A DNA stretch of 64,000 nucleotides, from contig NZ_CP157456.1 of the NCBI RefSeq assembly GCF_041549525.1, forward strand, positions 1,302,001 to 1,366,000. Direction: 5' to 3'. Position 1 is the first letter of the stretch, and each line of letters starts with the position of its first letter. Under the pieces are notes generated by a model that was given only the letters and a program-made list of their open reading frames with translations, was not told where the DNA came from and did not search any database. Of the stretch, positions 13,651-57,022 are shown one piece after another. The DNA is from Paenarthrobacter aurescens (GTDB taxonomy: Bacteria > Actinomycetota > Actinomycetes > Actinomycetales > Micrococcaceae). The translations under genes were made by a program, and so were the position numbers.

Positions 13651-15352
13651 GGACCAAAAGAACCCGTCCGCCGGCAGCCATGGGGCCCCGGCGCCTGCCA
13701 AGTCCCGCAGCACCAAGGCCCCCAGCACCAAGTCCCACAGCGCCAAGTCCCGCTCCAGCAACGGGGGTTCCGGCAGCCGCAGCTCCAACAAGGGTGTCAT
13801 CACCGGCGTTCTCTCCGCCGTGGTTATCCTGGCGGCGGGCGGAGGGGCGGTGGCCGCCACTTCCATGGTGCCCGAGCCTTCCGGCGGAACCACCATGGAT
13901 ATCCGCCAGGCAGACGTACCGGCCGGCCGGGCCCTGGGAGTTTGTCCGGAACCGGCGCGGCTGGTGAACGGAACAGTAGTGGGAACCGACGCAGAATTCA
14001 GCCCCGTCTCCACCACTGCTGCCAGCGCCCTGAACGCGGTGGTGCTGAGCAACCCAGCCGGGACGGTGCCCGGCAGCAGTGTGGCATCGCTCGGTGGTGG
14101 CATGGTGGCGAAAATCGCGGACGCGCCAACCAGCACTCCCACGCCAACTGTTGGACCGCCGGTTCTTGCAGCCGGCGTTGCGTCCATTAGCCCTGTGACC
14201 TCGCCGGCAGTAGTGGGCGCCGATGCCGTGGGAAACGAGCAGGCGTCGTTGGCTGCGAACCTCAGCTACTCAGCCACTGACGGCGATCTCCGGGGGCTGG
14301 CATCAACTCAATGCCAGCCGCCGGGAAACGACTCCTGGCTTTTGGGCGCGAACACGGCCGTGGGCCGGACCGCGGTTCTGAACGTAAGCAACGCCTCCGA
14401 GACCCCGGCCACTGTGAACCTTGAACTTTATGGAGATGCAGGGCAGATCCAGGCGCCCGGTGCGCGCGGCCTCCTGGTGGCTCCAGGAACCACCCGTTCG
14501 GTGAACCTGGCGGGCCTGGCTCCCGGCGAATCCCAACTTGCCGTGCACGTGCGAAGCACAGGCGGACCGGTTGCAGCCACCATCCAACAAAGCGTGCTGC
14601 GTGGCATCGCTCCGGGTGGCGTGGAATACCTCTCTCCTGGCGCGGGGCCGTCGAACCAACAGGTGATGTCCGGCGTCGATATTCAGGACCCGGCCGGAGT
14701 CAAAGCTCTGGGCGCTAAGTCAGGTTTCGCTGATGCCGTGCCAGCTCTTCAGCTTGCGGTACCTGGATCTACTGACGCCGTGGTCCAAGTCAGCCTTTAT
14801 GGTGCCAACGGTGAACGCAAGATTCCCAACGGGGGAGTGGTGACGGTCAAAGGCGGGACTGTGGCAACCCTGAACCTTGACGGCGTTCCGGCAGGCAGCT
14901 ACACGGTCAGGGCCAGTTCCGATGTCTCGTTCCTGGCGTCATCGAGGATAACCCGGGGCGTCAAGGCCGAGGACGCAACGGACTTTGCCTGGTCGCCTTC
15001 TTCGGCCCGCCTCGGTAGCCAGCATCTGGTGGCCATACCGCGGGAGGGCCAGAGGTTCTTGAGCCTGGGAGTTCCTGAGGGGCGGGGCACCGTCAGCTAC
15101 GCTCCGGTGACTGCCGATGGCAAGGTGGGCAAGGCTGTTGACGTTGATATGTCCGGTGGGACCACTTCCATGATTGAGCTGCCTGAGAAGTCCGGGGGCT
15201 CGGTGGTGGCCGGATACGTGGTTTCCGCCTCCGGTGACCCGGTGTACGGCGCATTGGTCCTGGGAAAGCAAGGCCGCACCGATGTCTCGGTGGTGGCAAT
15301 TCAGGATGCAGCCGCAGGACTGCAGAAGGTGCCAGTCTCTGTTGGCTACTAG
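13643..15352 (+). CDS. DUF5719 family exported protein
   Basis: A 569-residue protein with a long Ser/Lys-rich cytoplasmic tail (about residues 1-45), one transmembrane helix (GVLSAVVILAAGGGAVAAT, about 51-69) and a large secreted part with repeated beta-rich segments such as GRTAVLNVSNASETPATVNLELYG. It matches the DUF5719 type that follows the giant glycosyltransferase in many actinobacteria. The GTG start at 13643 lies inside the end of the glycosyltransferase gene, so translation is coupled and the two proteins probably work together at the cell surface. No catalytic motif is evident. Just past the stop codon a 12-bp stretch including it is repeated once (15341-15352, 15358-15369). Confidence 0.8.
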   Translation: MSEDQKNPSAGSHGAPAPAKSRSTKAPSTKSHSAKSRSSNGGSGSRSSNKGVITGVLSAVVILAAGGGAVAATSMVPEPSGGTTMDIRQADVPAGRALGVCPEPARLVNGTVVGTDAEFSPVSTTAASALNAVVLSNPAGTVPGSSVASLGGGMVAKIADAPTSTPTPTVGPPVLAAGVASISPVTSPAVVGADAVGNEQASLAANLSYSATDGDLRGLASTQCQPPGNDSWLLGANTAVGRTAVLNVSNASETPATVNLELYGDAGQIQAPGARGLLVAPGTTRSVNLAGLAPGESQLAVHVRSTGGPVAATIQQSVLRGIAPGGVEYLSPGAGPSNQQVMSGVDIQDPAGVKALGAKSGFADAVPALQLAVPGSTDAVVQVSLYGANGERKIPNGGVVTVKGGTVATLNLDGVPAGSYTVRASSDVSFLASSRITRGVKAEDATDFAWSPSSARLGSQHLVAIPREGQRFLSLGVPEGRGTVSYAPVTADGKVGKAVDVDMSGGTTSMIELPEKSGGSVVAGYVVSASGDPVYGALVLGKQGRTDVSVVAIQDAAAGLQKVPVSVGY

Positions 15353-33666: not shown

Positions 33667-35162
33667 CGGGGCACCGCCGCTCCACGACGTACGTCCATGG
33701 CTGCGTCTGCGGCCGCAACGATTTCGCCGGCATCGAAGGCTGACCAGGCCGCAGTCAACTGGGTCTTTGACGTCACAGCAGCCGCCCTCCAACCGGCCAG
33801 GCGCAAAATCTCCAGAACTTCCTCGTTGTTCCGCGAAGCATCAGTGATCACCAAGGCGAAAGCATTGGCTCCGTACCCGGCCGCGGGAGCAAGAGCCCGG
33901 GCCTCAGTGGTCGTTAGATTGCCCACCAGAGCCAGCAAGGGGCCGCGCAGTCTGTGTGCTGAAAGTTTGTCCATCAGGCGGTCATTGAAAGGTGAATCCG
34001 GACTCTCCGTACCTGCCGTGGACGGGGAGTTCTCCCTGTTACCTGAAGCATTCCTTGAAGCGTTCCCTGAACCGTTCCCTGAACCGAAGGTTGATTCCGC
34101 GTGTTCGTTCCGGTGGTGCTCGGCCCTGGCGTGCCTGGGGCCGCTTAGCTCCACCGCCGCCAAGGCCTCAGCGATTGCCTGAAGACCGCCCGCCCCTGAG
34201 AACTCCTCCGCATCCGGGTCCGCAGCAGAGCGCGAACGGCGGAACGCCGGACCGCCGAACGAGTCAAGGAGCCGCAGTGCATAGCTCCGTTCCGCCAAGT
34301 GGGCGCAGATGGACATAGCTGCCGTAACAGCCCACTCAAAGTTGATGCTGGTCACCAGGTCCGAGTCTTCATCGCGGCCTCCAAAGATGGAGCTGTTGGC
34401 GGGGGCAAACGCTGAGAGCCTCTGGTCGATGATGAGGGTGGCTTCCGGCGTGGTCACCGATTCCTCCTGGCGCACCATCAGTTGACCGTGCCGGGCGGTA
34501 GCGGCCCAGTGGACGCGGCGCATGGGATCACCGTGCCTGTACTCGCGGGTCATGATGTCATCATCGCTGGGATTGGCCCTGATGCGGGTGGCCGTCACAC
34601 CGTCGTTGCCGCGGGCGCCGGCGAGCCCGGTTACGGGAAGTTCGACGGCGGCAGGGGTCACGGTGAGGATGTCGCCGTCGTCAATTGCATGCCGCCGCAG
34701 AGATAAGCCGAACGGGTCACTGAACTCTGCCGTCACCGGTCCAATCCGGAACTGTCCCCGTTTGCCTGAGCGAAGGTGATACTCATAGCGGCTGGTCCCT
34801 CCCGACGCTGACCGGGCCGGAAAGCGGAAGGCAGGTGGCTCGCCGAAGCGAGGAGGCAGCTGCTCCTCCATGATGACCTGCCCCGTGCCGGATGAAGTAC
34901 GGGCCACGGCCAGCCGGACCGTGGTGGTGCTGGATGTCTCTACCGTGGACGGATTGAACTCCCGGTACACCTGGAATTTGGGTTTGAGCACCCGGACGCC
35001 GGCAAGCGCCACGAGAGGGAGGAGGAACAGAAAAACAGCCAGCGAAAGCAGGTCCCGCCTACCCATGACGTAGGCGCACCCCAGTGCGAGGGCCCCGGCT
35101 GCCAGGAGCCCCCAGCCGCGGTTGGTAAACAAGTGCTTGGGCAGCCGATCCATGAGCGCCAT
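33663..35162 (-). CDS. DUF58 domain protein (von Willebrand-like)
   Basis: About 499 residues. Two membrane helices at the N-terminus (GLLAAGALALGCAYVMG; LLSLAVFLFLLPLVALAG) are followed by a beta-domain and the DUF58 signature REYRHGDPMRRVHWAATARHGQLMVRQ (about residue 215), then a von Willebrand A-like domain beginning with LIIDQRLSAF. A Ser/Asn-rich insertion interrupts the latter (about 355-395), with several repeats of an N-(A/G)-S-G-N type. I placed the start at ATG 35162 (AGGAG upstream); the open frame further upstream overlaps moxR. It sits 13 bases after moxR and overlaps the next gene. Confidence 0.88.
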   Translation of the reverse strand: MALMDRLPKHLFTNRGWGLLAAGALALGCAYVMGRRDLLSLAVFLFLLPLVALAGVRVLKPKFQVYREFNPSTVETSSTTTVRLAVARTSSGTGQVIMEEQLPPRFGEPPAFRFPARSASGGTSRYEYHLRSGKRGQFRIGPVTAEFSDPFGLSLRRHAIDDGDILTVTPAAVELPVTGLAGARGNDGVTATRIRANPSDDDIMTREYRHGDPMRRVHWAATARHGQLMVRQEESVTTPEATLIIDQRLSAFAPANSSIFGGRDEDSDLVTSINFEWAVTAAMSICAHLAERSYALRLLDSFGGPAFRRSRSAADPDAEEFSGAGGLQAIAEALAAVELSGPRHARAEHHRNEHAESTFGSGNGSGNASRNASGNRENSPSTAGTESPDSPFNDRLMDKLSAHRLRGPLLALVGNLTTTEARALAPAAGYGANAFALVITDASRNNEEVLEILRLAGWRAAAVTSKTQLTAAWSAFDAGEIVAAADAAMDVRRGAAVPR

Positions 35163-40752: not shown

Positions 40753-42585
40753 TTGGCCCACCTGCTCGGCGGCGAAAACCTCACCGTTTCGTTCGCGACC
40801 CGCACTGTCCTCGACGGCGTCACCCTCGGCTTGGAGGACGGCGACCGCATAGGCATGGTGGGGCGCAACGGCGACGGAAAATCGACGCTCATGCGCCTCC
40901 TGGCCCTCCGTTCGACGCCTGACTCCGGCCGCGTCACCAAGCGCGGAGATGTCAACGTGGGCTACCTGGACCAGGGCGACGTCCTCGACGGCGACCTCAC
41001 CGTGGGCGCAGCGATCGTCGGCGACCGCGCGGACCACGAATGGGCGGCCAACGCCAAGATCCGCGAAGTCATGGGTGGACTGGTGGGAGACGTCGACTGG
41101 CACGCCAACGTCCACGCCCTCTCCGGCGGGCAGAAACGCCGTGTTGCCTTGGCGAAGCTCCTCATAGAAGACCACGACGTCATCATGCTGGACGAACCCA
41201 CCAACCACCTCGACGTCGAAGGCGTCGCCTGGCTGGCACGGCACCTGAAGACCCGCTGGCGCGCCAACCAGGGAGCCTTCCTGGTGGTCACCCACGATCG
41301 CTGGTTCCTGGACGAAGTATGCAACTACACCTGGGAAGTTCACGACGCCATGGTGGACATGTTCGACGGCGGGTACGCCGCCTACGTCCTGGCGCGCGCC
41401 GAGCGCGACCGCATGGCCGCCGTCGTCGAAGGTAAACGGCAGCAATTGGTCAAGAAGGAACTGGCCTGGCTCAGGCGCGGCGCTCCTGCCCGTACCGCCA
41501 AGCCCAAATTCCGGATTGAAGCTGCCAACGACCTCATTGCCGACGTTCCGGACCCCCGCGACTCCGTGGCCCTGAGCAAAATGGCAACCGCACGCCTGGG
41601 CAAAGACGTGCTGGACCTTGAGAACGTAACGCTGGACTTCCTTGACGGAGCCGAGGGACAGAAGCTGTTCGACAACATCACCCTGCGCCTCGCGCCCGGT
41701 GAAAGGCTCGGCCTGGTGGGCGTCAACGGAGCCGGGAAGTCCACGCTCCTGAAACTGCTGAACGGCGAAATCCAGCCGAGCTCGGGCAAAGTAAAACGCG
41801 GCAAAACCGTGGTCACCGCCGTGCTTACCCAGGACGTCAAAGAGCTCGACGAAGTCTCGGACCTGCGTGTTATTGAGGTGATCGAACGTGAAAAGCGGTC
41901 CTTCAGTGTGGGCGGCAAGGAATTCACCGCCGGTCAGCTCGTGGAACAGCTCGGGTTCACCAAGGAAAAACAGTGGACGCCTGTTTCGGACCTGTCCGGT
42001 GGTGAGCGGCGGCGACTCCAGCTCCTGCGCTTGCTGGTAGGTGAGCCCAACGTCCTCATGCTCGACGAACCCACCAACGACCTCGACACCGACACCCTTG
42101 CCGCCGTCGAAGACGTCCTGGACGGCTGGCCCGGCACCCTCGTAGTGGTCAGCCACGACCGTTACCTCTTGGAACGCGTCACAGACAACCAGATGGCCCT
42201 GCTCGGCGACGGCAAGCTCCGCGGCCTTCCCGGCGGCGTGGATCAGTACCTCCAACTGCGCGAAGCTGCACTGGCCTCAGGCGCCGTTGGTGGCGGTTCC
42301 GGTGCTCCCACTGCTGCCAGCGGGGGCTCTGCAGGATCCGCTGCCCCGTCCGGTGCCAGCGAAGCCGAGAAACGAGAAGCCCGAAAAGACCTCAACAGGA
42401 TCGACCGCCAACTCGGCAAGATCTCCCAGCAGGAGGAAAAGCTCCACACCCAGATGGCTGCAAAGTCCGAGTCCGGCGATTTCGACGCCCTTGGGGAACT
42501 CAACACCAAACTGCGTGAACTGCTTGAGGAAAAAGAGGGTTTGGAAATGGAGTGGTTGGAGGCCGCCGAAATCCTCGGCGAATAG
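40753..42585 (+). CDS. ABC-F family ATPase
   Basis: A soluble protein of 610 residues with two ABC domains and no membrane segments. Walker A GRNGDGKST (about residues 37-45) and GVNGAGKST (about 320); signatures LSGGQKRRVALAKLL and LSGGERRRLQLLRLL; Walker B VIMLDEPTNHLDVEG and VLMLDEPTNDLDTDT. The linker between domains and a C-terminal coiled coil (EAEKREARKDLNRIDRQLG...) match Uup-like ABC-F proteins, which act on ribosomes or DNA branch structures; antibiotic protection is possible but not implied. TTG 40753 is the start. A 32-bp repeat array begins 36 bases after the stop. Confidence 0.92.
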   Translation: MAHLLGGENLTVSFATRTVLDGVTLGLEDGDRIGMVGRNGDGKSTLMRLLALRSTPDSGRVTKRGDVNVGYLDQGDVLDGDLTVGAAIVGDRADHEWAANAKIREVMGGLVGDVDWHANVHALSGGQKRRVALAKLLIEDHDVIMLDEPTNHLDVEGVAWLARHLKTRWRANQGAFLVVTHDRWFLDEVCNYTWEVHDAMVDMFDGGYAAYVLARAERDRMAAVVEGKRQQLVKKELAWLRRGAPARTAKPKFRIEAANDLIADVPDPRDSVALSKMATARLGKDVLDLENVTLDFLDGAEGQKLFDNITLRLAPGERLGLVGVNGAGKSTLLKLLNGEIQPSSGKVKRGKTVVTAVLTQDVKELDEVSDLRVIEVIEREKRSFSVGGKEFTAGQLVEQLGFTKEKQWTPVSDLSGGERRRLQLLRLLVGEPNVLMLDEPTNDLDTDTLAAVEDVLDGWPGTLVVVSHDRYLLERVTDNQMALLGDGKLRGLPGGVDQYLQLREAALASGAVGGGSGAPTAASGGSAGSAAPSGASEAEKREARKDLNRIDRQLGKISQQEEKLHTQMAAKSESGDFDALGELNTKLRELLEEKEGLEMEWLEAAEILGE

Positions 42586-42620
42586 TACGCCGCCGGCCGT
42601 CCCGCCGCCGACTACCAACC

Positions 42621-42811
42621 GTCTCTCACATCCCGCGGGGTTTTTGGCGACGGTCTCTCACATCCCGTGGGGTTTTTGGCGACGGTCTCTCACATCCCGT
42701 GGGGTTTTTGGCGACGGTCTCTCACGTCGCGTGGGGTTTTTGGCGACGGTCTCTCACGTCGCGTGGGGTTTTTGGCGACGGTCTCTCACGTCCCGTGGTT
42801 TTTTGGACTGG
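42621..42811. repeat. Array 1: six tandem 32-bp repeats
   Basis: Copies start at 42621, 42653, 42685, 42717, 42749 and 42781, exactly 32 bp apart. Each reads GTCTCTCAC(A/G)TC(C/G)CG then GGGGTTTTTGGCGACG; the first three have CACATCCC, the next two CACGTCGC, and the last diverges at its end. The gap 42586-42721 after the ABC-F gene consists essentially of this array; its other half overlaps the C-terminal end of the VOC reading frame on the minus strand. Confidence 0.97.
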
Positions 42812-43200
42812 TTCGTAGCCTATGAGCCAGCGCAGGCCGTGGCGGTCTACCACCTGGCCCTCCGATGCGCCCCAGCGTTTTGGCGCGAGCGGGGCCACGA
42901 TCCTGTCCCCGTCGGCGAGCTTGTCGAACCACTCGTGGAGAACACCTGGTTCGGCCGCTCCCAGCAAAGACAGCATGACGCCTTCCACGGCCACCGATTT
43001 TTCGCCGTCCGCAGCGTCAGATCCCCCAGTGATACCCACCCACTCAGGACCCCGTGGGCGACCGCATCAAGCGGCCCGTCAGATCGGCTGAACTCAGCGT
43101 AGGTGTACAAGGAAAGTTCCCCGCCGAAAATCTCCGCGTAGAAGCCGAGCGCCTCACGCGCCGTCCCGGGGAAGCTGACATAGAGCTGCGGTGCAGTCAT
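42722..43200 (-). pseudogene. VOC-family (PhnB-like) protein gene, frameshifted
   Basis: The first part (43200 down to about 43030) encodes TAPQLYVSFPGTAREALGFY and AEIFGGELSLYTYAEF, typical of PhnB-like glyoxalase/VOC proteins. The second part (about 43025 down to 42722) is in another frame: VEGVMLSLLGAAEPGVLHEW, DKLADGDRIVAPLAPKRWG and GLRWLIGYEP. One extra base in the five-C run at 43023-43027 would restore SLGGSDAADGEK across the junction. The reading frame continues about 20 codons past the usual VOC end, through two copies of array 1, before it stops. Function of an intact protein would be unknown. Confidence 0.8.
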
Positions 43201-43233
43201 GACTACAGCCTACAAATCATCAAGCACGTGGAG

Positions 43234-43342
43234 GTGAGAGATGGTGGGGCCCAGAGGGGTGGGAGGTGAGAGATGGTGGGGCCGAAGGGCTTGGGATGTG
43301 AGAGATGGTGGGGCCCAGAGGGGTGGGATGTGAGAGATGGTT
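43234..43342. repeat. Array 2: four 32-bp repeats with inverted core
   Basis: GTGAGAG begins at 43234, 43266, 43298 and 43330, again exactly 32 bp apart. Units read GGGATGTGAGAGATGGT plus a G-rich 15-bp filler (GGGGCCCAGAGGGGT or GGGGCCGAAGGGCTT). The reverse complement of array 1 contains GGGATGTGAGAGACGGT, so the two arrays share a 17-nt core but have different fillers and lie in opposite orientation. Array 2 fills the gap between the VOC gene and the TetR stop codon. Confidence 0.95.
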
Positions 43343-43344
43343 GC

Positions 43345-44031
43345 TTAGGAGTCGCTGCGGAGCTCGGGCTCTTTTTGCAACCCAGTCAGACCGTTCCAGG
43401 CCAGGTTCACCAGGTGTGCGGCCACGGCGCGCTTGTCCGGCGTACGGCTGTCCAGCCACCATTGGCCGGTCATGGCCACCATTCCCACGAGCATCTGGGC
43501 GTACATGGCACCGTCCGCCGCGCTGAATCCCCGGCGCGCGAATTCGTCGGAGAGCAGGTGCTCCACACGGGCGGTGACATGAGAGAGCAGCGTGGAGAAG
43601 GCGCCCTCGGGCTGCGAGGGCGGAGCGTCACGCATAAGGATCCGGAAGCCGTCGGTGCGGTCTTCGATGTAGCCGAGAAGGGCCAATGCAGCCCTTTCCA
43701 CCAGCACCCGGGGCTTGGCTTCGGTGCTGAGCGCCTCGGTGATGGAGTCCAGCAGAATGCGGAATTCGGTGTCCACCACCTGCCGGTACAAGCCTTCCTT
43801 GGACCCGAAGTGCTCGTAGATCACGGGTTTGGAAACGCCGGCGGAGGCCGCTATTTCCTCAATGGTGGTGCCGTCCAGCCCGCGGGCGGCAAAGAGGGCG
43901 CGTCCAATGCCGATGAGCTGTGATTTGCGCTGCTGCCCGGTCATCCGTACGCGCGCTGCCGGAGCGTTGGTAACGTGCTCTGCGGGCTCGGATGCGGCCG
44001 ACGGCCGGGGGAGTTCAGTGCGGTTGCTCAC
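43345..44031 (-). CDS. TetR/AcrR-family transcriptional regulator
   Basis: A 228-residue regulator. The N-terminal helix-turn-helix is TTIEEIAASAGVSKPVIYEHF, followed by GSKEGLYRQVVDTEF; about 25 disordered residues come before it. The C-terminal ligand domain is not diagnostic. GTG 44031 is the start. By position (next to glmU and upstream of mfd) it corresponds to M. tuberculosis Rv1019. Its own target sites may lie in the 190 bases before it; array 2 lies directly after its stop codon. Confidence 0.9.
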   Translation of the reverse strand: MSNRTELPRPSAASEPAEHVTNAPAARVRMTGQQRKSQLIGIGRALFAARGLDGTTIEEIAASAGVSKPVIYEHFGSKEGLYRQVVDTEFRILLDSITEALSTEAKPRVLVERAALALLGYIEDRTDGFRILMRDAPPSQPEGAFSTLLSHVTARVEHLLSDEFARRGFSAADGAMYAQMLVGMVAMTGQWWLDSRTPDKRAVAAHLVNLAWNGLTGLQKEPELRSDS

Positions 44032-54566: not shown

Positions 54567-57022
54567 ATGTTGCCGGACCCTTGGCTGGACGAAGATACCG
54601 TCGCAGCCGGTCTGAGGTCATCAAAACTCCCGGATAGAGCGCAACTTCTGGACCTGATCCTTTCGCTGGTACCGTCCCCGTCCACCAGCGGCATTGTGGT
54701 GGTGGGAGAGCGGGGCTCCGGAAAGAGCCACCTTTTGCTCTCCCTCAAAGAGGGACTCCCCAAAAGCCTGGATGTCCGTACCTTCAGCGGAAAAGCGGAA
54801 CGCAGGGCACTGAACTTTGGAGCCTTGGGTGCCGTCCCGGCAGCTGAACCGGAAGAGGCCGTAGCCCCCGGTCTCCACATTCTCCGGGCCCTGAGCAGCA
54901 CTTTGGGCCCGGCGGAGTATTTGTACACGCCGCCACGCGGACGACGCCGGAACAAACGGCATGCTCAGCCGCCACGGCCGCAGCTGGTGACATCCACTAC
55001 ATCGATCCGGCCTCCTTGGCGGTTCTGCTGCAACTCATTCCCGGCTTCGGAGCAACCCTGGTTGCCACTGCGGAGAGCCGGCACCCCCTTCCTCCGGATC
55101 TTTATCAGCTCTGGGAGGACGGCTTCCTGGAGCAGTTTTTCCTTCCACCCTTTAGCTTCATTGAGGCGCACGCCCTGTGCGAGACGATCCTTGGCGGGCA
55201 CGTCCAACGGCGCGCCAGCAGCCTCCTCGCGGCCATGAGCGGCTTCAACGTAGGGTTGCTCTGCCTGGCCGTCAATGACGCCCGGGCCTCCGGTTTCCTG
55301 GTTCGGATTGACGGTTACTGGACCATCGACGTCCGGGCACATTGTGACTGGCCCGGTGTTGTTGAGCACGTGCGGGGGGAGAACATTTCACGGCCGCCCG
55401 AGGAGCGTCAAGCGCTCGAACTCATCGCTCTTTCGGAGCCCGTGGCCCTTGAGGTAGTGGAGCGCCACTTCGGCCAGAAAGCCCTGGAACATCTCCTGGC
55501 ACAGCATGAGATCCGGCTGCTGCCCGGCCGGCCCCTGCTGCTCCGTACAAGTTCCTGGCTCAGGGGAGAAGGAACCCGGCTGTCCGTACCGCGGTCCAGG
55601 AGCATGGCGCTCCGGCTGGGCGTGGAGGAGCCTGTGCTGACTGCGGAGACCGCGCCCACCATGCTGCGTTGGATCACATGGACCCTGGACTGCGGACTGA
55701 CGCTTTCAGACGAACTTCTCCTCGCTGCTGCCCCTGCGGCGGACAGGCCATCCACCGCCGAGCTTGCACTCAGGGCCGCCTCGGCCGTCTCCGGTGCCGG
55801 GCATCTGGACGAGGCCAAGCTGGTCAGGGCGCGGGCGCTGATCGCCGAGGGTCACCTCCGGGAAGCAGCTCCGGAGCTTCGGCAGCTGGCAACTGTGGGC
55901 GGGCCCCCTGAAGTGAAGGCGGACGCCGCCCATCGCCTTCTGGCATTGGGGCTGCTGGGCGTTGCACCGCTGGATGCCGCACCCCTGGGGGCTGCGCCGC
56001 TGGATGCCGCACCGCTGGGGGCACCAGACGCGAGCGATCCTGCCGGGCTGATAGTGGAGAGCGTGCGCGAGGCCGAGCGTCTGCTGCTGTCCGGGGCGGC
56101 GCCGGAAGCCGTGACCAGTACCTCGGCCGCCATGGACGCCATCACCTCCGATCCAACCCTGGACATGTTCCTCCCGGGTGTCCTGCTCCGGCACGTCGTT
56201 GGCCTGAGATACAACCTGGCGTGGGACCTGGTGGATCCGCTGCTGCTCCCGCCCGCCGACTACACCATGCCCGTGCACCTTTCAGCGTGCCTGGATGTGG
56301 CCCGGGGCTACGTCCACATCAGCCAGGGACTCCCACGGGCGGCCGGCGCTGCTTTGGAGCCCGTCCTGGCAGAACTGCACGACGCCGGCCTGCCGCCGGT
56401 CAGCGCCTTGGCTGCGGCACTGCTGGCCTACTCCGAGGCGCTGTGCGGAAACTCCCGGCAGGCCATGGTCAGGGCCCGGCAATCCATGGTGGCGCAGGAA
56501 TCCGCCGCTGGGAGTTCGCAAAGGCAGCACGATCTCCTCAGGGATCTCAGCGCCGTATTTGTGGCCGCCGCCCAAGATCTGGCTGCCGGCACTTCGGGGC
56601 ATCTGATGAATCTTGCAGAAGAGTTCCACTCCCAGGGCAGCACCTTGATGGAAGCCGAGGCTTTCTCGCTCCTGATACTGAACGCGGCCTCCTCCGGCGT
56701 TCACGATTCCGGGAGCCAGCGCCGCCTTGGCGAGCTGGCAGCGGCCGTCCATGGACCCGGGGGTGCGGCGATGGTGACCTTCGCAGCCGCCTTGGTGGAC
56801 AACGACCCCAAAATGCTCGAGTCCGCTGGCCGGAGCCTGTCCGCCGACCGGCAGTTTGCCCACGCCGCGCTGTGCTACTCGCGGGCCGCTGAGGGCTATG
56901 CGGCCAGGACGCGCACCGCTGCCAGCCGCCGGGCCTCGGTGCTGCTGGAGAGACTCCGGGGCGCCTTCGACAGCGGAATCGTTCCACCGCTGGGTTGGGT
57001 GCCGGGCCGGGCCGGCGGCTGA
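54567..57022 (+). pseudogene. Third large ATPase paralogue, frameshifted and lacking HTH
   Basis: The 5' part (ATG 54567, GGAG upstream) encodes a P-loop domain with GERGSGKS (about residues 47-54) and stays in frame to about 54985. The 3' part is in another frame from about 54990 to the stop at 57022, starting with DIHYIDPASLAVLLQLIPG, which resembles the region just after Walker B in the paralogues. The junction CAGCTGGTGACATCCAC lacks one base (or four) relative to an in-frame VD(D)IHY. The helical region follows, but the frame ends without a LuxR HTH. A 30-bp tandem duplication (55961-56020) gives APLDAAPLGA twice. Confidence 0.8.

What the first reader, a model, noticed from the sequence alone, without database searches (positions are those of the whole stretch)
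42621..43342. Twin 32-bp repeat arrays in opposite orientation with a shared 17-nt core
Seen directly: six copies at 42621-42811 and four at 43234-43342, each exactly 32 bp apart. Array 1, reverse complemented, and array 2 share GGGATGTGAGAGAYGGT, but the other 15 bp differ (array 1 CGCCAAAAACCCCAC-like; array 2 GGGGCCCAGAGGGGT-like). So period and core are kept while the filler is not. A 32-bp step is about three helical turns, so cores sit on one face of the DNA. The arrays point in opposite directions and bracket a broken VOC gene beside a TetR gene. This pattern suggests a binding platform for a repeated protein (nucleoid-type or regulator) or an expanding intergenic element; no known class that I recognise fits.
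Basis: partly seen in the sequence, partly recalled or inferred. Interest (0 to 1): 0.8.

Follow-up and report, generated by a model that had tools for sequence, protein, structure and literature searches.

The report
Phased repeat arrays at gene ends
Soil bacteria of the genus Arthrobacter carry many short DNA repeats, mostly spaced 32 letters apart just after the ends of genes, whose shared core differs between lineages like a dialect, which hints at an unknown partner molecule that reads gene ends.

Summary
The two arrays are real, and they are two of at least 50 arrays (2+ units) found in 29 stretches of this 4.36-Mb Arthrobacter genome. The step is 32 bp in 90 of 98 cases. None lies inside a predicted gene. 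36 of 50 point their outer edge at a gene's 3' end, 8 overlapping the stop codon. A generic form (GTGANNRNSSG every 31-33 bp) clearly exceeds its control in 48 of 61 genomes of the genus; in 122 genomes of other genera it clearly does so in one. Within a genome the core is shared by unlinked sites while filler is mostly local; between genomes the core changes as a dialect. At two orthologous 3' ends, 7 of 7 units read follow their genome's dialect. Left and right arrays of a site are not specially complementary, Rfam has nothing in six loci, and the REP transposase family is in 1 of 61 genomes, not this one. Best reading: a genus-specific 3'-end element read by an unidentified sequence-specific factor, probably a DNA-binding protein sitting every three helical turns. 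Factor and function are inferred. The VOC gene between the arrays looks incidental and TetR an unlikely binder.

The parts
42617..42794 (-). Array 1: six 32-bp-phased cores (42617, 42649, 42681, 42713, 42745, 42777), core on the minus strand, so CTCTCAC on the strand of the upstream ABC gene; outer edge 32 bp after that gene's stop codon
43229..43342 (+). Array 2: four 32-bp-phased cores (43229, 43261, 43293, 43325), core on the plus strand; outer edge 2 bases from the stop codon end of the TetR gene
40753..42585 (+). ABC-F-type protein (two ABC_tran stretches), whose 3' end faces array 1
43345..44031 (-). TetR-family regulator, whose 3' end faces array 2; start uncertain (my gene caller prefers 43944)
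42822..43200 (-). Broken VOC/glyoxalase-like gene between the arrays; longer in frame in relatives; judged incidental to the arrays

Best explanation
The arrays belong to a family of 3'-end elements largely confined to one genus. A unit is a conserved core (generic form GTGANNRNSSG; here GGGANGTGAGAGAGSGTC) plus mostly local filler, repeated every 32 bp, typically just downstream of a stop codon and reading CTCTCAC on the strand of the gene that ends there; convergent genes can each have one, which gives inverted pairs. Inferred mechanism: an unidentified sequence-specific factor, most likely a DNA-binding protein that binds side by side every three helical turns, occupies the arrays and insulates or helps to end transcription units, in both directions where arrays are paired. 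Core and factor drift together, giving lineages dialects; unit number changes by slippage, which carries the local filler. Shown: family, location, orientation bias, step, dialects, persistence at orthologous sites. Inferred: the existence of the factor, DNA rather than RNA as its target, and the 3'-end role.
For: Genome-wide: 163 matches vs 22 for the reversed pattern; 50 arrays, 0 inside predicted genes, outer edge 36 3' vs 14 5' while the inner edge is even (25 vs 22); within -5..10 bp of the outer edge 18 3' ends vs 1 5' end, and in 80 loci of named strains 44 vs 0. Step 32 in 90 of 98 and 235 of 252. Core 0.80 vs filler 0.45 identical between sites. Dialects: four middle core positions 0.82 identical within and 0.56 between genomes, 0 of 2000 label shuffles; at bcp and MetRS 7 of 7 units follow their genome's dialect. 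No excess left-right complementarity and weak folding of one-sided arrays, so a shared binder explains the core better than self-pairing. Persistence at orthologous sites.
Against: No binder identified. 14 of 50 arrays face a 5' end, many as inverted partners between tandem genes. A hard roadblock starting at the stop codon would stop polymerase inside the gene (inference). Filler too shows a small same-genome effect (0.47 vs 0.40, 1 of 2000), so part of the dialect signal may be shared history. Dialects are leaky: in 3 sites of G012 2 of 5 units were off the main form, and G001 and G051 use two forms. 13 of 61 genus genomes have few or no matches above control. Some centres of inverted pairs are near-perfect hairpins, and innermost units show a weak complementarity excess (168 of 5000). 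Sense cores are C-rich, which would also suit an RNA-level factor.
Confidence: 0.4

Rival explanations
1. RNA-level element: the transcript of each array is a C-rich, G-poor 3' UTR bound by Rho (a rut site) or another RNA-binding factor, exposed just after the stop codon; it promotes termination or protects the 3' end.
For: Sense core 55% C and 7% G, sense unit 41% C and 21% G; arrays begin at or near the stop codon; orientation follows the gene; hairpin-plus-T sites lie beyond or between arrays in several loci.
Against: A near-constant 32-nt step and word-like dialects are not expected of Rho's loose preference for YC-rich RNA (recalled). Filler is G-rich in sense (35% G, 28% C). Inverted arrays also stand between tandem genes, where no annotated gene transcribes one of them in the C-rich sense.
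Confidence: 0.2
2. A REP-like population of short selfish or formerly mobile sequences that persists in the genome, kept similar by rare copying rather than by a host function.
For: Extragenic, repeated, inverted pairs, genome-specific word, copy number from 1 to 307 pattern matches between genomes; REPIN populations are described as persisting for millions of years (passages of PMC8049555).
Against: PF01797 (Y1_Tnp, the RAYT family) found in 1 of 61 genomes and not in this one; filler is not copied along between sites; arrays sit at orthologous places in many species; no exact pattern match in viral contigs. Another, unknown mobiliser is not excluded.
Confidence: 0.2
3. Arrays are duplicated arms of bidirectional hairpin terminators: left and right units pair in RNA to make a long stem.
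For: Some centres are near-perfect hairpins in register with the arrays; in G002 (L287) both sides carry the same altered, mutually complementary core; hairpin plus T-run after 17 of 36 array-bearing 3' ends vs 20 of 101 others.
Against: Left and right arrays of a site are no more complementary than those of different sites: own 18 pairs 13.89 vs 14.02, all 49 pairs 14.08 vs 13.96 of 18. At bcp in G001, G002 and G012 the terminator stem does not carry the dialect (read). At the window locus the arrays are 435 bp apart with a gene between. The comparison is confounded by longer gaps at array sites.
Confidence: 0.1
4. Neutral local slippage at tolerant intergenic sites without a function.
For: Homogenisation within sites and variable unit number.
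Against: Core kept far above filler between unlinked sites, near-constant step, 3'-end bias and dialects.
Confidence: 0.1

Closest known systems
REP / REPIN elements with RAYT transposases
   Same: Short extragenic sequence population with a genome-specific word, inverted pairs, long persistence; REPs near stop codons and ordered tandem REP arrays are reported (passages of PMC12306157, PMC3116915, PMC8049555)
   Different: Unit here is not a palindrome, forms direct arrays at a 32-bp step with local filler, and the RAYT family is missing from 60 of 61 genomes
MIRU elements of Mycobacterium tuberculosis (recalled, no call)
   Same: Tandem interspersed repeats of an actinomycete that lie between genes and can overlap stop codons
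   Different: MIRU units are longer and more uniform over their length; no dialects or 32-bp step known to me
BIME-2 arrays bound by DNA gyrase in E. coli (recalled, no call)
   Same: Repeat arrays after genes that act as a protein platform
   Different: Palindromic REP units in alternating orientation; no species word of this kind
DNA uptake sequence dialects of Neisseriaceae (title and start of abstract of PMC3630211)
   Same: A short word that differs between related species and has a receptor; inverted pairs in terminators (recalled)
   Different: Our words stand in phased arrays and none of 166 arrays was inside a predicted gene; no uptake role tested
Rho utilisation (rut) sites (recalled, no call)
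   Same: C-rich, G-poor RNA after a stop codon
   Different: Near-constant step and sequence dialects

Membership tests
REP/REPIN | Extragenic, high-copy, shared word within a genome | tested here: met
   163 vs 22 control; 0 of 50 and 0 of 116 arrays inside predicted genes
REP/REPIN | Unit is itself a palindrome that folds as a hairpin | tested here: not met
   Unit profile has no dyad; one-sided arrays of 3+ units fold at mean z -0.84 sense and -0.26 antisense, with single arrays down to -4.4
REP/REPIN | Associated RAYT transposase (PF01797) | tested here: not met
   1 of 61 genus genomes, not the own one; the family rings in 5 of 14 control genomes
Bidirectional hairpin terminator arms | Compensatory change between left and right arms of a site | tested here: not met
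   weak excess for innermost units only (168 of 5000); arms were preselected by a profile, which lowers power
Described RNA families (Rfam 15) | Match at the gathering score | tested here: not met
   0 matches in 6 array loci, 56,506 bases; the window itself was not scanned
rut site | C-rich, G-poor sense RNA | tested here: inconclusive
   Core yes, filler no
rut site | Rho-dependent transcript end | not testable with these tools
   needs RNA data
Phased protein platform | Step near a whole number of helical turns kept across diverged filler | tested here: met
   32 in 90 of 98 and 235 of 252 steps; common descent of the unit contributes to this
Phased protein platform | A protein that binds it | not testable with these tools
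   no candidate identified

The most novel reading that the evidence does not exclude
Arthrobacter has a dedicated, fast-evolving recognition factor that reads a lineage-specific word repeated every three helical turns at gene 3' ends and assembles an oriented filament that marks and insulates the ends of transcription units: a bacterial gene-end mark with dialects, which none of the papers listed in my searches appeared to describe.
Probability: 0.25. Interest if true: 0.9.

Novelty: new variant of a known kind. Interest (0 to 1): 0.7.

Why it matters
A repeat whose core is held similar at unlinked sites while its filler is largely free, and which changes as a block from lineage to lineage, suggests coevolution with a trans-acting partner. 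That makes a concrete question testable: which protein or RNA recognises the core, and does it define bacterial transcript ends? With dialects available from dozens of sequenced soil strains, specificity swaps can be tried directly. It also suggests that 3'-end repeats in Actinobacteria are richer than palindromic REP-type families.

Tried and rejected
Local TetR operator: rejected, arrays occur genome-wide and in much of the genus beside unrelated genes.

Mobile element carrying the VOC gene between terminal arrays: attractive at first because arrays bracket VOC. Rejected because 16 of the 18 own inverted pairs are less than 180 bp apart (the other two are the window pair, 435 bp, and L070, 519 bp) and because arrays also stand singly at gene ends.

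RNA stem between left and right arrays: permutation test negative, with a weak signal for innermost units.

Hairpin inside each unit: in the window's array 1 the hairpin scan finds a stem followed by T's, but the genome profile does not keep such pairs.

REP/RAYT: PF01797 absent from 60 of 61 genomes. Rfam: nothing in 6 loci. Viral contigs: 0 exact matches to one strict own-dialect pattern.

Arrays as replacements for terminators: not supported. Hairpin plus T-run was found after 17 of 36 array-bearing 3' ends and 20 of 101 others, but the gaps differ in length (medians 318 and 272 vs 107 and 119 bp), so the comparison is confounded.

Paper searches that showed no paper recognised as describing these arrays. 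PMC4029610 (Renibacterium VNTR; passages only) gives no unit sequences in the passages seen; its supplement could not be read. PMC12306157 (a passage and part 1 of one section) lists 5,512 REP and 705 RIT sequences for Arthrobacter livingstonensis; whether some overlap with these arrays I could not tell.

Slips: the ABC query was translated out of frame; it served only to place the gene end, which came out off in at least 6 of the 20 loci (L142, L145, L147, L150, L154, L155), so one search prints extra gene sequence there. The gene caller is home-made; starts and small genes are uncertain. My note gives '1-8' units at the window locus; the recount gives 2 to 8 where an array is readable, plus one L138 array with a single core beside masked bases.

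Full report
OBSERVATION. Ten matches to the quoted core with up to 3 mismatches fall in the window, all in the arrays, against 0.29 expected. The 17-mer is a consensus: 3 of 10 copies match it exactly.

WHOLE GENOME. The window is part of one 4,355,454-bp contig. GRGANGTGAGAGAYSGTT with up to 3 mismatches has 163 matches, the reversed pattern 22. The listing was cut at about 100 places; I fetched 28 stretches around the listed clusters, so the census is a lower bound, and further places at about 1.84, 2.11 and 2.95 Mb were not fetched. A profile from 170 cores gives the unit AARCNCGC-GGGANGTGAGAGAGSGTC-SGGNNN.

ANATOMY. With a home-made codon-usage gene caller, 50 arrays of two or more units were found in the 28 stretches plus the window, in 25 of these 29. 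None lies inside a predicted gene. The outer edge (GSGT end of the core) faces a gene's 3' end in 36 and a 5' end in 14; the inner edge is even (25 3', 22 5', 3 undetermined). Steps: 32 in 90, 33 in 6, 31 in 1, 64 in 1. In these 80 loci: 116 arrays, none inside predicted genes, outer edge 88 3', 21 5', 7 undetermined; steps 32 in 235 of 252. Several of the 80 loci are orthologues of each other or of ours, so they are not all independent. A gene end within -5..10 bp of the outer edge is a 3' end in 18 and a 5' end in 1 of the own arrays, and 44 and 0 in the named loci; an overlap of two bases with the stop codon (-1) is the commonest single value, 8 of 50 and 22 of 116. So the text of the gene's strand often reads: stop codon, then C(C/G)CTCTCTCAC. 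Where genes converge each can carry an array, hence inverted pairs; L053 and part of L050 have the reverse order. Pfam on 20 of the 39 genes listed shows unrelated functions: PEP carboxylase, methionyl-tRNA synthetase, a 2-oxoacid dehydrogenase acyltransferase, a peroxiredoxin, aminotransferases, regulators.

ORTHOLOGUES. At the window locus, arrays between the ABC gene and TetR are found in L138-L141 and in L094, L162, L182, L193, L222, with 2 to 8 units where readable, the 32-bp step, and differing filler; L139 and L193 show only the left array, L140's left array has a strongly altered core that my profile does not detect, and L138's right array is masked by Ns but for one core. Of the 20 relatives, 16 have neither a VOC match nor an array by my own-dialect profile; in several of them another hairpin repeat stands there. 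Other loci behave alike.

GENUS AND DIALECTS. A strict own-dialect pattern occurs in 12 of 61 genus genomes, and in a family draw in 7 of 295: 7 of 24 of the own genus and 0 of 271 others. A generic pattern, GTGANNRNSSG repeated at 31-33 bp, matches at least once in 61 of 61 genus genomes; 48 of 61 have at least 10 matches and at least three times the reversed control, 13 do not (counted; own 71 vs 1, highest 307 vs 1). In a family draw of 129, of 122 genomes of other genera one stands out clearly (G209, 50 vs 1) and two weakly (G112, 8 vs 2; G145, 6 vs 1); of 7 drawn from the own genus one has no match. The listed matches (lists are cut) show dialects: own GTGAGAGAG, G032 GTGAGGGAG, G051 GTGACCGGG and GTGAGCGGG, G012 GTGAGCG(A/G)G, G002 GTGAGGA(A/C)G, G001 GTGATGGGG and GTGAGCGGG, G021 GTGAGAGAG often preceded by AT(T/C)AA. 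Over 31 sites (12 own sites drawn at random, 19 from six other genomes, one of which gave a single site) the four middle core positions are 0.82 identical within and 0.56 between genomes; 0 of 2000 label shuffles reach this. Filler shows a smaller effect, 0.47 vs 0.40, 1 of 2000. At two orthologous 3' ends (bcp and MetRS) I read by eye the four relatives of known dialect (G001, G002, G012, G021): 7 of 8 places have a unit, and 7 of 7 follow the genome's dialect (loci).

WHAT KEEPS THE CORE. Between sites of this genome core identity is 0.80 and filler 0.45 (0.275 expected from composition); within sites 0.88 and 0.81. Filler is homogenised locally while the core is held near a genome-wide word. 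Copying of whole units between sites would carry filler along, and conversion tracts confined to a dozen bases are unlikely (inference). The simplest reading is selection by a shared trans-acting factor. Arm-arm pairing does not appear to be the reason: left and right arrays of a site are no more complementary than arrays of different sites (own 18 pairs 13.89 vs 14.02 permuted; all 49 pairs 14.08 vs 13.96, 1074 of 5000), though the innermost units of all 49 pairs show a weak excess (168 of 5000) and pairs less than 60 bp apart lean the same way (478 of 5000). The arms were found with a consensus profile, which lowers the power of this test.

DNA OR RNA. For DNA: near-constant 32-bp step, dialects, inverted pairs also between tandem genes. 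For RNA: orientation with the gene, start at the stop codon, C-rich sense core, and hairpins beyond or between arrays in several loci. One-sided arrays fold weakly on average (mean z -0.84 sense, -0.26 antisense, though single arrays reach -4.4). I lean to a DNA-binding protein, at about 0.4, against 0.2 for an RNA-level element of Rho type.

COMPARISON. REP/REPIN elements resemble it most (passages read), but the unit is not a palindrome and PF01797 is present in 1 of 61 genomes, not this one. MIRU, BIME and rut properties are recalled. Dialects of the Neisseria uptake sequence (title and start of abstract) are the best parallel for a word that changes together with its receptor. Searches listed no paper that I recognised as describing these arrays; most subscription papers and all supplements were out of reach, so absence from print is not established.

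VERDICT. A real and orderly sequence system of one genus, far larger than the finding suggested; its mechanism is open.

Noticed in passing
L142, L143, L146, L148, L149, L155, and L138 beside its array, between the ABC and TetR genes: A second repeat family with CGTCGCTTAGACAC and GGTCGCTGNGCGACC, partly in inverted pairs, stands in the same intergenic position in relatives that mostly lack the arrays.
   Followed up: no
L076 3037-3491, L150, L151: A third hairpin repeat (GGTTATCCGGCAGC...GCGTC and relatives); in L076 it is interleaved with the 32-bp units in a composite repeat.
   Followed up: no
L073 3179-3827: A whole inverted pair of arrays with flanking DNA is repeated three times in tandem with 2 to 4 right-hand units.
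   Followed up: no
L141 about 770-2090: Extra DNA of about 1.3 kb, looking like an insertion sequence, lies beside array 1 in relative G023 (read from the sequence).
   Followed up: no
G209 (genus g45): One genome of another genus has 50 generic matches against 1 in the control; possibly a transfer or a misplaced genus border.
   Followed up: no
own genome, about 1.85-2.95 Mb: Few arrays were seen in this quarter of the chromosome (places); possibly because arrays sit in conserved genes outside it. GC skew of the fetched stretches was too noisy to place origin and terminus.
   Followed up: partly
L138 and L201: Runs of N lie inside arrays of relatives, so unit numbers from draft assemblies may be understated.
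   Followed up: no
window 13698-13751, 34038-34083, 55955-56022: Other short tandem repeats with periods 15, 12 and 15/30.
   Followed up: no
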